Assembly: GCF_025742995.1 (NCBI RefSeq)
Contig: NZ_JAOVQM010000002.1
Coordinates: 186,001-250,000 of the forward strand
Reading direction: 5' to 3'
DNA: 64,000 bases
From: Paracholeplasma manati
GTDB lineage: Bacteria; Bacillota_I; Bacilli_A; Acholeplasmatales; UBA5453
Shown here: piece after piece, positions 18,737-24,007 of the stretch
How the letters are laid out: every line of letters begins with the position of its first letter
Position numbering within the stretch: the stretch's first letter is position 1
Position numbers and translations under genes: made by a program
The notes under the pieces: generated by a model
What the model was told of the DNA's origin: nothing
Seen by the model: only the letters and a program-made list of their open reading frames with translations
Databases searched by the model: none

Positions 18737-19812
18737 GACTCATTACCTATGGCAACGAAGCATTTAAAGCCATTTTAGAAGACATCGATCGTGCCCAACG
18801 AAGTATCCTCATTCAAATGTTCATTTGGCGTGATGATCAGATTGGTAATCAACTCTTAAATCACTTACAAAGTGCATTGGATCGAGGGGTTCAAGTCACG
18901 ATTCAAAAAGATGCTTATGGGTCTATTTTTGAAAAAGCAGAAGAGAATAAACAGAGCTTATTTCATAAAGACAAACAAAAAGGCATCCATATCTTAGCGA
19001 AAATCATCGATGTTGGCTACGCTGATGATAGAAAACCCAAAGGTTATCAACAAAAGCCCAATGAAGCCTTGAACAAATTCATTGGTCATCCGAACTTATC
19101 ACTATCAACCTCAATCCTCAAAGACCATACGAAGTTTTACATCATCGATGACACCATCTTTTATGTCGGTGGGGTCAATATCGAAGACAAAGAGAATGGA
19201 AAAGACATTCAAGGTAGAACCTATTTAGATTATATGGTGAGAATCGATAACCCCGATGAAGTGAACTATTTCCTATCGAGATTTGAAGGTAAAATAGCCT
19301 ATGATGCGAATCGAACGATTGAATATGTGATGAATAGACCAAACGATTTTCAAGTCATAAAAGACCTAACACACCTATTAAATCAAGCAAATTATCGCAT
19401 TTTGATGCATATGGCCTATTTCGGAGCGAAATCTGCCATGCAAGCCTTATTTAACGCTTTAAAGCGTGGTGTGAAAGTGACCATCGTGACCTCTAAAGTC
19501 TCTAACCTTCAAACCGAATATAATCTTTACTGGATGAATAAACTCCAACAAGCAGGTGCAGAAGTCTATTTATATGAAGGCTTGGTACATGCGAAAGCGA
19601 TTCTGATTGATGATACCTTCATCGTCGGATCAACAAACTTGAATAATTCAGCCTTTGATCAATTGGGTGAATGTTCACTGGTGGTTCAAGGGGATGCCGC
19701 TTTAAAAGAATCCTTCTTACAAAGCCATAAAGATATTTTGTCTAATACCATTCAAACGAACCCCATTAAATATTCAAAAATTAAGTCTTTTTTTGAACAA
19801 TTACTCAGTTAA
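18733..19812 (+). CDS. phospholipase D family enzyme (cardiolipin synthase-like)
   Basis: A 359-residue protein with two phospholipase D half-domains. The catalytic HxKxxxxD motifs are HTKFYIIDD and HAKAILIDD, each followed by the usual G(S/G)xN (VGGVNIED and VGSTNLNNSAFD). The family transfers phosphatidyl groups; a cardiolipin synthase role fits a membrane-lipid setting next to the LtaS-like gene. Unlike ClsA it has no N-terminal membrane helices, so it is like soluble ClsB-type enzymes, or another PLD activity such as a phosphodiesterase. Start ATG 18733 overlaps the rsmH stop by 4 nt. A terminator follows. Confidence 0.82.
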   Translation: MRLITYGNEAFKAILEDIDRAQRSILIQMFIWRDDQIGNQLLNHLQSALDRGVQVTIQKDAYGSIFEKAEENKQSLFHKDKQKGIHILAKIIDVGYADDRKPKGYQQKPNEALNKFIGHPNLSLSTSILKDHTKFYIIDDTIFYVGGVNIEDKENGKDIQGRTYLDYMVRIDNPDEVNYFLSRFEGKIAYDANRTIEYVMNRPNDFQVIKDLTHLLNQANYRILMHMAYFGAKSAMQALFNALKRGVKVTIVTSKVSNLQTEYNLYWMNKLQQAGAEVYLYEGLVHAKAILIDDTFIVGSTNLNNSAFDQLGECSLVVQGDAALKESFLQSHKDILSNTIQTNPIKYSKIKSFFEQLLS

Positions 19813-19841
19813 AAGCGTGATGATTTCACGCTTTTTCTTTT
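19811..19841 (+). terminator. terminator of the ltaS-rsmH-PLD unit
   Basis: AAAAGCGTGA (19811-19820) pairs with TCACGCTTTT, followed by TCTTTT. Confidence 0.88.
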
Positions 19842-19845
19842 CCTA

Positions 19846-19854
19846 TGCTATACT
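19846..19854 (+). promoter_or_regulatory. extended -10 promoter element
   Basis: TGCTATACT (19846-19854), an extended -10 element 23 nt before the GTG start of the DUF2804 gene. No clear -35 is seen because the preceding terminator occupies that place. Confidence 0.5.
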
Positions 19855-19877
19855 GAAAGTATAAAAGAGGTGTTATT

Positions 19878-20897
19878 GTGGAAAATCGTTTGACCAAAGG
19901 CCCTTTACTCGATGAACGAGGCAATCTCATCGAAGCGGGCTATCACGAAGATTTGATTCGTGCGTATGACCGTAAAGACATCACCGTCAAAGGGATGCGC
20001 ACCAAAGAATGGGATTACTACTACATCGGTAATCATAAACACGGCATCGCTTTTACGGTCGCTGATAATTCGTACATGTGGCTGGTTTCCATCACCACCT
20101 TTGATTTTGAACATAAAACTGAACATACCAAATCACCGATGGGCTTTTTCCCAATGAAGCGACTAGGTATGCCAAGTTCATCGAGGGTCGGCAACGTGGT
20201 CTTTCAAAAGAAGGGATTCTCGTTTGAATTTTTAATCGAAAATGATAAGCGACATCTCAAGGTTAGGATGGACCGTTTTAAAGACAATAAAACGCTATCC
20301 GCAGATATTGTTTTAACCGAAAAAGAAAACAGCTCCATGGTGATCGCGACGCCGTTTGAAACCAAAGGACATTTCTATTACAACCACAAAATCAATTTGA
20401 TGGATGTCTCCGGTAGTTATACGATTGGACAAGACACGTTCCCACTGGTAAATGCGTTTGGCACACTCGACTGGGGTAGAGGTGTTTGGACCTATAAGAA
20501 TACCTGGTATTGGTCCAGTGCTTCTGATTTATTCGAAGGCAAGCGCATTGGCTTTAACTTGGGTTACGGCTTTGGGGATACCTCAAAGGCCAGTGAAAAT
20601 ATGTTTTATTACGATGGACAGTGCTATAAGTTTGAAGACATCACTTTTAATATTCCAAAGAAGCATGACCAATATGATTACATGAGTCCTTGGACATTCA
20701 CCTCTAAATCTGGTGATATTGAACTCACATTTCATCCGATTTTAGACCGTCAAAGCGCGTCTAATGTGGTAGTCATCAAATCCATTCAACATCAAGTCTT
20801 TGGCAAATTCAGTGGCTATTTCACCTTAAAGAATGGTCAGAAAATCGAATTTCATAACGTCATGGGTTTCGCGGAACGCGTGGTTAATCATTGGTAA
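19878..20897 (+). CDS. DUF2804 family protein
   Basis: A 339-residue soluble protein of the DUF2804 family, recognised by its start GPLLDERGNLIEAGYHEDLIRAYDR, the MGFFPMKRLGMP segment and the central LDWGRGVWTYKNTWYWSSASD with NLGYGFGD. The family is beta-rich and thought to resemble lipocalin-like/carotenoid hydratase folds, but no biochemical role is established. There is no signal peptide. The start is GTG 19878 after AAGAGGTG; no ATG fits. It has its own promoter and terminator. Confidence 0.8.
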   Translation: MENRLTKGPLLDERGNLIEAGYHEDLIRAYDRKDITVKGMRTKEWDYYYIGNHKHGIAFTVADNSYMWLVSITTFDFEHKTEHTKSPMGFFPMKRLGMPSSSRVGNVVFQKKGFSFEFLIENDKRHLKVRMDRFKDNKTLSADIVLTEKENSSMVIATPFETKGHFYYNHKINLMDVSGSYTIGQDTFPLVNAFGTLDWGRGVWTYKNTWYWSSASDLFEGKRIGFNLGYGFGDTSKASENMFYYDGQCYKFEDITFNIPKKHDQYDYMSPWTFTSKSGDIELTFHPILDRQSASNVVVIKSIQHQVFGKFSGYFTLKNGQKIEFHNVMGFAERVVNHW

Positions 20898-20902
20898 ATT
20901 GT

Positions 20903-20932
20903 AAAAGACAGTCTCGAAAGGACTGTCTTTTA
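20903..20932 (+). terminator. terminator of the DUF2804 gene
   Basis: AAAAGACAGTC (20903-20913) pairs perfectly with GACTGTCTTTT (20921-20931). Confidence 0.88.
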
Positions 20933-20993
20933 ATTTCGACTACAATCGAAATTAAAAGCTAAAACGCATATAATTTCGACTATAATCGAAATC
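20932..20993. promoter_or_regulatory. two tandem palindromic operators centred on -10 boxes
   Basis: AATTTCGA-CTACAA-TCGAAATT (20932-20953) and AATTTCGA-CTATAA-TCGAAATC (20972-20993) are two near-identical dyads 40 bp apart. TACAAT and TATAAT lie at their centres, so a bound dimer would cover each -10 box. They precede the split ATPase gene at 21007. Confidence 0.7.
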
Positions 20994-21197
20994 AAGAGGT
21001 GATACTGTGATTAATCGAGAATTGTATATCGATGAGTTGTGGCGTTATAACAACACAATCAAGAAGTCCCCTTCCTCTTCAGGTAGTGGAATGAATTGAT
21101 TGTTTTTCTTTTGATTTATGTATACAAACACCCATAAATAATGTTATAATATAGTTGAATAATCTCAATACATAAACACTATGAAAGGGTGAACTGG

Positions 21198-22298
21198 ATG
21201 AACAAAGCCTTTAAGTTTCGAATCTATCCAAATGAATCTCAAAAGACTTTAATCCATATGACTCTAGGCCATAATCGCTTTCTCTGGAATAAGATGTTAG
21301 AAGATAAACAGAAACAGTATGAACTCACTAAAAACATCCTTCATCCCACACCTGCACAATATAAAGATGCTTATCCATTTCTAAAAGACATAGACTCTTT
21401 ATCTTTAGCCAATACACAACTCAATCAAGAAAAAGCTTTTAAACAATTCTTCAATCATAAACAAGACTTCCCTAAGTTTCATTCTAAGAAACAAGACTAT
21501 GGTTATACGACCAATCTTGTTAACAATAATATCGCTCTATTAAAAGGTTTTATCAAACTACCTAAACTGGGTGAAGTAAAGATCAAACAACATAGAGCCA
21601 TACCCAATGAGATGATTCTCAAAAGTGTAACGGTATCTAAGACTGGTACAGGTAAGTATTATGTTTCTATTCTATATGAATACCAAAAAGAGATTAAGAA
21701 AAAAGATGTAAAAGAATCGATTGGATTAGATTTCTCAATGACTCATTTCTATGTGGATCATGAAGGATTTAAATTGGATTATCCTAAAGACATCCAAACA
21801 GACTTCAATAAACTCAGAGTCCTTCAAAGAAGTTTATCTAGAAGAATCAAGGGTTCTAGTAACTATCATCAGAAAGTATTAGAAATCGCCTTATTACATG
21901 AAAGAATCAGACATAAAAGAGATGACTTTTTACATAAACTATCTAACGCGATAACCAAGCGTTATGATTTGGTGAGTGTCGAAGGATTGAATCTTAAAGA
22001 TATGTCTCAAACAAGTCCATATTACGCTAAGCAAATATCACGGTTTGGTTGGACTAGGTTTATATCATTCTTGAAGTACAAGTTAGAAACACAAGGTAAG
22101 ACTTTGATGGTGATGGACGAGTGGTATCCATCGTCAAAGAGATGTAGTTGTTGTGGGGACATCAAAACAGATTTGAAGTTATCTGAGCGAGTTTATCATT
22201 GTCCAAGTTGTGAGTTACATTTGGATAGAGATCATAACGCAGCGATCAATATCAACAAAGAAGGGTTTAGAAAGTATAAGTTAGCATTTCAGTTATAA
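21198..22298 (+). CDS. tnpB: RNA-guided endonuclease TnpB
   Basis: A 366-residue TnpB of the IS605 superfamily, the ancestor group of Cas12: an RNA-guided DNA nuclease that cuts the empty donor site and so helps the element persist. The N-terminal part starts KAFKFRIYPNESQKTLI with the usual HNRFLWNKML. The split RuvC triad is complete: D178 in IGLDFSM, E262 in VSVEGLNLKDM, D345 in LDRDHNAA. The zinc finger has C316/C319 (CSCC) and C335/C338 (CPSC). All key residues are present, so it may be active. ATG 21198 follows AAAGGGTG; an earlier GTG at 21189 lies in that site. TATAAT-like sequence precedes it near 21148. The omega-RNA lies at its 3' end. Confidence 0.93.
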   Translation: MNKAFKFRIYPNESQKTLIHMTLGHNRFLWNKMLEDKQKQYELTKNILHPTPAQYKDAYPFLKDIDSLSLANTQLNQEKAFKQFFNHKQDFPKFHSKKQDYGYTTNLVNNNIALLKGFIKLPKLGEVKIKQHRAIPNEMILKSVTVSKTGTGKYYVSILYEYQKEIKKKDVKESIGLDFSMTHFYVDHEGFKLDYPKDIQTDFNKLRVLQRSLSRRIKGSSNYHQKVLEIALLHERIRHKRDDFLHKLSNAITKRYDLVSVEGLNLKDMSQTSPYYAKQISRFGWTRFISFLKYKLETQGKTLMVMDEWYPSSKRCSCCGDIKTDLKLSERVYHCPSCELHLDRDHNAAININKEGFRKYKLAFQL

Positions 22299-22404
22299 AC
22301 AAATAAGAACCGTAGGGACTACGGGGATAGCCTATTGAGTCACTGGCGGGTACGCTGGTTTGGATAGGAAGCCCCCACTTCTATTTAAGTGGTGGGTAGT
22401 TCAC
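22240..22404 (+). ncRNA. omega-RNA (right-end guide RNA scaffold of TnpB)
   Basis: Structured segment covering the end of tnpB and the element's right end. Visible stems: CCGTAG/CTACGG (22310-22324), ACTGGCG/CGCTGGT (22342-22359), an outer CCTAT/ATAGG pair enclosing it, and CCACTT/AAGTGG (22375-22392) extended by CCC/GGG. In known TnpB systems this region forms the scaffold, and the bases just outside the right end are the guide: here AGATAAGCCATTCATC, which is the coding sequence of the split ATPase. The 5' end is an estimate. Confidence 0.6.
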
Positions 22405-23545
22405 AGATAAGCCATTCATCAAATTGATTACGGGTATGCGGCGTGTGGGGAAGTCCACATTGATTGATTTATATATCCAAAAATTAATTGAAACAGGGGT
22501 ATCCAAAGATCAAATACTGAAAATCAATCTAGAATTACCAGATTTTTTCAATATAGATAATTATCGTGATTTATCCGATTATGTTCTCTTTTGGGCGAAA
22601 GAGAAAACAGCCCCACTGTATGTATTTATCGATGAAATCGGTCGTGTTCAATCATGGGAAAAAGCCATCAATGGTTTTCATACATTGAATCGTTTCGATT
22701 TATATATCACCGGATCAAACGCCTATTTGTTATCAACGGATTTATCCACATTTTTAGCCGGTAGATATGTTGAAATACCTGTCTTACCTTTGTCATATAA
22801 AGAATTCACCCGTTTATATCCAAAATCTGATTTCAATGATTTTATTAGATTTGGTGGTATGCCATCCATATCACCATTGGGTTTAGTGTATGAAACTTCT
22901 ATGACTGTGCTGAGAGATTCATTTCGATCAGCGGTTTTACAAGATGTTATAACGAGACATCAAATCAGACAAACCGTTGTTCTTGAGCGACTCATTCAGT
23001 ATATTTTTACGAATACAGGCAAAACATTTTCAGCTTTATCCATTGTCAATTACTTAAAATCTCAAAGAATCGCCGTATCTGTTGACACCATTTTATCTTA
23101 TCTAACGATTTTGGAGAATGCATTCTTAATCTATCGCGTTAAAAGGCATGATTTGATTGGTAAAGTCATATTAAAAACCGAAGAGAAGTACTATATCTCT
23201 GATCATGGATTCAGGGAAGCCATCGCAGGAAACAATTTTACTGTGATTGAAATGATCCTTGAAAATATCGTTCTGATTGAACTAAAAAGAAGAGGATATC
23301 AAGTCTATATCGGTAAAGTAAATGATCTAGAAATCGATTTTGTTGTCAAGAAAGATGGTCAAACTGCTTATTATCAAGTCGCCTATTTACTTATAAATGA
23401 TTCGACACGATCAAGGGAATTTGATGTGTTCCAGCTTATTACTGACAATCATCCAAAATATGTATTATCGATGGATACAATCAACTTCTCAAAAGATGGT
23501 ATTATCCATAAAAATATGATTGACTTTTTATTAGAGTAACGTTAA

Positions 23546-23579
23546 AAAACACCCCATTCATCATCGAATGGGGTGTTGT
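23546..23579. terminator. terminator between converging genes
   Basis: AAAACACCCCATTC pairs with GAATGGGGTGTTGT (23566-23579). The run of A residues on the left gives a U-tract only for the minus-strand fur-like transcript; for the plus strand the tail TATTT is weaker. Confidence 0.8.
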
Positions 23580-23581
23580 AT

Positions 23582-24007
23582 TTAGTATGTTTTTTTCTTT
23601 CTCGCACCAATGGTGATACGGACATAATCAATTTGTAAATCCTTGAGTTCAGGGATTTGTTTGATGAATTCGAAGACATCGGTATTATTGATTTCGGTAA
23701 TCTTATTGGTATCTTTGACGACTACGTGGATATGGCTATCGGCGTTGTGCATTGGGTTATCAATCGCGAGGTCATAATACTTGGTATCGTTGATGAACAG
23801 TTCAACCACGATGCGTTGTTCGATTAAAAAATCCAAGTTGTTGTAAATCGTCGATATATTCGTAAACCCTTTTTTCGCAAGCGCAGTTTGAATTTCCTTG
23901 AAGGTTAAATGGTTATTTTCAAGGACGTCAATCATCGCTTTACGGCTATTGGTGATACGAAGATTTTTTTTGCGTAACTTATTGAAATAGGTCTCACGAG
24001 AATCCAT
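23582..24007 (-). CDS. Fur family transcriptional regulator
   Basis: A 141-residue metal- or peroxide-responsive repressor. The N-terminal winged helix (LRKKNLRITNSRKAMIDVLENN ... FTNISTIYNNLDFLIEQRIV) is typical. The C-terminal dimer half keeps a metal-ligand segment ADSHIHVVVKDT where Fur/PerR/Zur have HxHxxCxxC, but the CxxC pairs of the structural zinc site are absent. Metal specificity (Fe, Mn, Zn or peroxide) cannot be read from the sequence. ATG 24007 follows AGGAGG and directly abuts the stop of plsC (0 nt gap), so both come from one message. Its targets could include the siderophore importer at 9.3 kb, but no shared operator was seen. Confidence 0.88.
   Translation of the reverse strand: MDSRETYFNKLRKKNLRITNSRKAMIDVLENNHLTFKEIQTALAKKGFTNISTIYNNLDFLIEQRIVVELFINDTKYYDLAIDNPMHNADSHIHVVVKDTNKITEINNTDVFEFIKQIPELKDLQIDYVRITIGARKKKTY

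What the first reader, a model, noticed from the sequence alone, without database searches (positions are those of the whole stretch)
21007..23539. TnpB element precisely splitting an ATPase gene, with its guide reading the split site
Removing 21057-22404 joins the two gene halves in frame (AACAAC-AC + A-GATAAG). The element has an intact RuvC triad and zinc finger, right-end scaffold stems, and no tnpA. By the known TnpB mechanism the guide is the flanking ATPase sequence, so the enzyme would cut the uninterrupted ATPase allele next to a motif ending in CAC. This gives a natural, readable donor site and target-adjacent motif.
Basis: partly seen in the sequence, partly recalled or inferred. 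Interest (0 to 1): 0.62.

Follow-up and report, generated by a model that had tools for sequence, protein, structure and literature searches.

The report
TnpB-only insertion sequence splitting ATPase gene

Summary
The window holds a 1,354-bp IS200/IS605-type element with tnpB but no tnpA (IS1341 layout), inserted near the 5' end of an AAA_14/DUF4143 ATPase gene. Insertion, intact TnpB and right-end RNA scaffold are confirmed. The element is 21051-22404, between TATAA and the guide AGATAAGCC. So the target-adjacent motif is not "...CAC": 32 of 34 left ends read in the genus follow TTTAA, this one TATAA, one CTTAA. Four of the five complete copies have an empty site in a same-species genome; that genome lacks the ATPase. 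All nine left ends found in this genome lack tnpA and no TnpA over the Pfam cut-off was found, whereas all six copies in a sister species carry it. TTTAA plus a UUCAC scaffold end is already published for Sulfolobus TnpB. Verdict: new member of a known kind, junction and motif corrected. No uninterrupted allele of this ATPase was found in the genus, so the proposed natural target is inferred only.

The parts
21007..21050 (+). 5' fragment of the ATPase gene (GTG start, ...LWRY + AA)
   Evidence: sequence; joined reading RYKDKPFIK matches uninterrupted homologues
21046..21050 (+). TATAA: target/transposon-adjacent motif of this insertion (TTTAA at 32 of 34 left ends read in the genus)
21051..22404 (+). 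whole element, 1,354 bp, tnpB-only IS200/IS605 type
   Evidence: ends shared by copies at unrelated sites; empty sites
21051..21100 (+). conserved left end (first 50 bp shared with tnpA-carrying copies of a sister species)
   Evidence: alignment
21198..22298 (+). tnpB, 366 aa, RuvC D/E/D and zinc finger intact
   Evidence: dN/dS 0.11-0.18 among the five own complete copies
22310..22404 (+). right end encoding the omega-RNA scaffold: stems 22310-22324, 22331-22368, 22371-22397, ending TTCAC (22400-22404)
22405..22420 (+). guide segment AGATAAGCCATTCATC (first 16 nt of right flank)
   Evidence: position right after TTCAC; only perfect match in G000/G002 is this site
22405..23539 (+). 3' part of the AAA_14/DUF4143 ATPase gene (Walker A GMRRVGKST retained)

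Best explanation
An IS1341-type (tnpB-only) member of the IS200/IS605 family inserted 3' of TATAA inside an AAA_14/DUF4143 ATPase gene, without target duplication. It was most likely mobilised in trans by a Y1 TnpA that is no longer detectable in this genome. Shown: element ends, multiple copies, empty sites, TTTAA rule, intact tnpB under purifying selection, conserved right-end fold. Inferred from the known family mechanism: the tnpB 3' end yields an omega-RNA whose guide is the right flank; TnpB then cuts an empty allele or donor joint, (TTA)TATAA followed by AGATAAGCC..., so that repair from the occupied copy restores the element. The occupied site is spared because the guide's own copy follows TTCAC.
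For: Ends shared by copies at unrelated sites. Empty sites for four of five complete copies in a same-species genome. ATPase homologues L118 and L117 read TATAAAGAyAA (KYK/GYK + DKPFIK). RuvC and zinc finger residues align with solved ISDra2 TnpB. Low dN/dS in all 45 pairs of ten full copies. Three-stem right end. No tnpA at own copies, while all six copies in sister genome G001 have tnpA directly upstream of tnpB. Published SisTnpB7: TTTAA cognate TAM, guide begins right after UUCAC, a target flanked by TTCAC is not cut, and -4T changes have the second least effect.
Against: No RNA or cleavage data. No uninterrupted allele of this ATPase in seven genomes of the genus. The site motif is TATAA rather than TTTAA, so cutting efficiency is uncertain. 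Covariation in the scaffold is slight: 4 of 28 pairs, two of them resting on one distant sequence. The interiors of at least four copies are missing from the assembly, so a hidden tnpA cannot be wholly excluded.
Confidence: 0.9

Rival explanations
1. One reading: element 21057-22404, motif ending in CAC to the left of the target.
For: The junction is in frame.
Against: CAACAC is shared by copies at unrelated sites; homologues have YKDKPF, not YNNTDKPF; empty sites fit the 21051 boundary.
Confidence: 0.02
2. A dead, immobile relic: TnpB and its RNA are no longer made or used here.
For: No tnpA over the cut-off found in the genome; this copy has an atypical motif TATAA.
Against: Open tnpB in all five complete copies; dN/dS 0.11-0.18 among them; strain-specific insertions with empty sites indicate movement since the two genomes separated.
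Confidence: 0.1
3. An element that restores the ATPase at the RNA level (intron- or IStron-like), so that the gene is not really interrupted.
For: Exact removal restores the frame.
Against: No Rfam intron among the three matches at E<=1 in 20900-23700; other copies lie at unrelated TTTAA sites; DNA insertion explains the exact junction.
Confidence: 0.02

Closest known systems
SisTnpB7 / SisTnpB1 IS605 elements of Sulfolobus islandicus (PMC11043419: passages and section 7 read; PMC10640517: passages read)
   Same: TTTAA motif; for TnpB7 the guide follows conserved UUCAC; RuvC nuclease TnpB
   Different: Archaeal, tested in cells and in vitro; in PMC10640517 tnpB-only copies are given TTTAT, here tnpB-only copies use TTTAA
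ISDra2 TnpB (PMC8612924: passages read; solved structures 8bf8, 8h1j)
   Same: Whole-length homology, catalytic residues, right-end RNA, guide = flank
   Different: TTGAT motif; element carries tnpA
IS1341 group as defined in PMC9956272 (passages read)
   Same: Only tnpB between left and right ends; 1,252-1,393 bp is the length range given there for the shorter ones
   Different: Close tnpA-carrying relatives share its first 50 bp and right end, so it may be a tnpA-less derivative
ISEfa4-family element of Enterococcus faecium (annotation of NZ_LR135385.1)
   Same: TnpB 42% identical; right end ending GTAGTTCAC; same first stem
   Different: Carries tnpA

Membership tests
IS200/IS605 TnpB | OrfB_IS605, TNB and HTH domains over cut-off | tested here: met
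   Pfam 85.9, 82.4, 58.1 bits; NCBIfam guided_TnpB 301.9 bits over cut-off 100; the narrower IS200_TnpB exception model scores 345, under its cut-off 425
IS200/IS605 TnpB | RuvC D/E/D triad and zinc finger | tested here: met
   alignment with solved ISDra2 TnpB
IS200/IS605 element | insertion 3' of a fixed motif without target duplication | tested here: met
   TTTAA at 32 of 34 left ends read; four empty sites
IS200/IS605 element | subterminal hairpins at both ends | tested here: inconclusive
   right end z -2.14, left end z -1.37 as single-stranded DNA
IS200/IS605 element | Y1 transposase TnpA | tested here: not met
   absent in element; no match over the cut-off in own genome; hence filed as tnpB-only (IS1341 layout)
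IS1341 group | tnpB alone, no tnpA-derived stretch over 20 bp | tested here: met
   no match to the interior of sister tnpA (query 528-946) in own-genome copies at E<=0.001
TnpB RNA-guided nuclease | right-end RNA with guide, cleavage next to the motif | not testable with these tools
   fold only

The most novel reading that the evidence does not exclude
In this species every detected copy has lost tnpA, yet the nuclease stays under purifying selection. At one site shared by two genomes, the flank is 400/400 identical while the element's left end differs at 8 of 119 aligned positions plus a 2-bp indel. TnpB-driven homing or conversion between copies, rather than TnpA transposition, may now be what keeps and refreshes these elements.
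Probability: 0.07. Interest if true: 0.6.

Novelty: new member of a known kind. Interest (0 to 1): 0.2.

Why it matters
It gives a corrected donor site and motif for a mollicute TnpB family, with natural filled/empty pairs in one species. It is also a case where tnpB-only copies seem to have outlived tnpA, useful for asking what TnpB does without its own transposase. It does not change the known picture of TnpB.

Tried and rejected
Distant DNA search against plasmids gave only three short partial hits. Rfam matches near the element are below gathering scores. The protein tree of 17 TnpBs does not settle whether tnpB-only copies arose once: 3 changes, one origin not ruled out, most forks weak. 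Upstream palindromes as a general mark of such ATPase genes: among 28 homologue loci scanned, only L118 showed a matching perfect palindrome, and L132 was uninformative because of N runs. Changed motifs at the four empty alleles (3 of 20 motif bases versus 20 of about 339 others, my arithmetic from the alignments) were considered as escape from TnpB, but the numbers are too small and drift plus ascertainment suffices. Self-targeting elsewhere: the guide has no other perfect match in G000 or G002; the one-mismatch site in each genome is preceded by AAGATG, not TTTAA. 'Ref70' in the literature: one search, only an unrelated paper. 'Acholeplasma' with 'TnpB': one search of the held library, no paper.

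Rows dropped: nine of 41 pattern matches to the left end were left out of the motif count (three lie inside tnpB, six are unrelated sequence); additionally kept only motifs within one change of TTTAA and gave 32; two G002 left ends that failed the pattern (L149, L173) were read by eye and added, making 34 left ends at 33 distinct flanks (L149 shares its flank with L020). Not every fragmentary left end listed was read.

Full report
What is there. The window lies in an unnamed 1.87-Mb genome, G000. Its genus includes G006, whose contig lengths (70,494; 188,735; 78,576; 37,797; 27,952) equal those of Paracholeplasma vituli 92-19 contigs, so the host is a Paracholeplasma-like mollicute. TnpB (21198-22298, 366 aa) matches OrfB_IS605, Cas12f1-like_TNB and HTH_OrfB over their cut-offs and NCBIfam guided_TnpB. 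Against solved ISDra2 TnpB it aligns along residues 2-356, with the RuvC D, E, D positions and the CxxC...CxxC zinc finger kept (which residues are catalytic is recalled). The split gene matches AAA_14 and DUF4143.

Boundaries. The element has four further complete copies in the genome (85-97% identical) and eight ends cut by contig ends, four left and four right. All nine left ends begin CAACACAATCAAG after unrelated flanks, and all nine right ends finish GTAGTTCAC before unrelated flanks. The element is therefore 21051-22404. The closest uninterrupted homologues (66, 60 and 54% identical) read DYQ-NKPFIK, GYK-DKPFIK and KYK-DKPFIK; the latter two have TATAAAGAyAA in the DNA. This supports the 21051 junction and suggests that TATAA was there before the insertion.

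Motif. Of 34 left ends read in the genus and in MAG UBA6235, 32 follow TTTAA, the window copy follows TATAA and one follows CTTAA (selection told in Tried and rejected). All 24 distinct right ends found finish TTCAC. The same pairing of TTTAA and UUCAC is published for SisTnpB7, where TTCAC-flanked targets are not cut, -4T changes had the second least effect and -3T changes the most (PMC11043419, passages and section 7). For SisTnpB1, most single changes in TTTAA had weak effect (PMC10640517, passages). By analogy TATAA may still be used, though this is untested.

Empty sites. Flank-joined queries for five complete copies were searched in seven genomes of the genus, own included. In the same-species genome G002 four of the five sites are empty. 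Across 90 bases at the junction one is identical (90/90); the other three are contiguous with 4, 8 (plus one gap) and 11 mismatches, counted from the alignment scores. At these three the motif in the empty allele is TATAA, TTCAA and TTCAA. The fifth site, the window's, cannot be compared: in G002, window 19801-20899 (98.9%) and 23544-23976 (99.8%) flank 1,067 unrelated bases with a lipoprotein-like gene. The ATPase itself was found in none of the six other genomes of the genus, apart from one distant homologue (37%) in G006. Hence no natural uninterrupted allele is in hand.

Transposase. The only Y1 match in the own genome is a 222-aa protein below the Pfam cut-off. All nine left ends of the genome are of the tnpB-only type: five complete copies, and four ends that fit tnpB-only better than tnpA-carrying left ends. 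Six of six tnpB copies in G001 have tnpA directly upstream. Among 61 genomes searched (own included), 19 have a Y1 match over the cut-off; G002 was not among them, but in a DNA search its matches covered only the left end and the tnpB start of a tnpA-carrying element. The interiors of the contig-end copies are missing from the assembly, so absence of tnpA is likely, not proven. Across ten complete copies (five own, five of six G001 copies) dN/dS is 0.08-0.30 in 45 pairs, 0.11-0.18 among the ten own pairs.

RNA. Twenty right ends (19 from the genus and UBA6235, one distant) fold into three stems; 24 of 28 pairs show no two-sided change, 4 do, and two of those rest on the single distant sequence. 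The window's right end folds at z -2.24. The evidence for the scaffold is mostly conservation, little covariation.

Mechanism. By the ISDra2 model (PMC8612924, passages) TnpB would cut the empty donor joint next to the motif, and repair restores the element. A gene-drive role in plasmids is reported for the family (PMC11870625, abstract). For this copy every step after the DNA anatomy is inference.

Verdict. An ordinary new member of a known kind, with the junction and motif corrected. The mildly unusual points are the apparent genome-wide loss of tnpA with tnpB kept, the TATAA site, and the shared site with differing element ends.

Noticed in passing
L020 (G000) and L149 (G002), left end of element: Same insertion site in two genomes: 400/400 identical flank but the element's first 121 bp differ at 8 of 119 aligned positions plus a 2-bp indel. 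Conversion or independent insertion; unexplained.
   Followed up: partly
window 20931-20954 and 20971-20994: Two near-palindromic repeats TAATTTCGACTAYAATCGAAATYA just upstream of the ATPase start; the homologue L118 has two similar ones at the same place, other homologues mostly not. Possible operator.
   Followed up: partly
G002 contig C45 (L074), slot equivalent to window 20900-23543: The ATPase slot holds a lipoprotein-like gene in the same species and only about 57-72 bases in G006 and G004: a variable gene slot.
   Followed up: partly
window 22304-22390; L183 2348-2479; L106 2978-3064: Rfam Ref70 (Enterococcus sRNA 70) matches the right ends of this element, of a sister copy and of an ISEfa4-family element at 29-31 bits, far below its gathering score of 115; two other TnpB loci in that call gave no match. 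Ref70 may itself be an omega-RNA; not shown.
   Followed up: partly
L030-L035 (G000): A second TnpB family (423 aa in L031 and L032), six matches in the genome; in the two loci read no tnpA ORF of 90 aa or more lies beside it.
   Followed up: partly
G002 empty sites for L010, L011, L012: Three of four empty alleles have a changed motif (TATAA, TTCAA, TTCAA) where the filled allele has TTTAA; too few to interpret.
   Followed up: partly
L022 1459-2127: 222-aa Y1-like protein just under the Pfam cut-off in G000; a similar sub-threshold match (open frame 230 aa) in G004.
   Followed up: no
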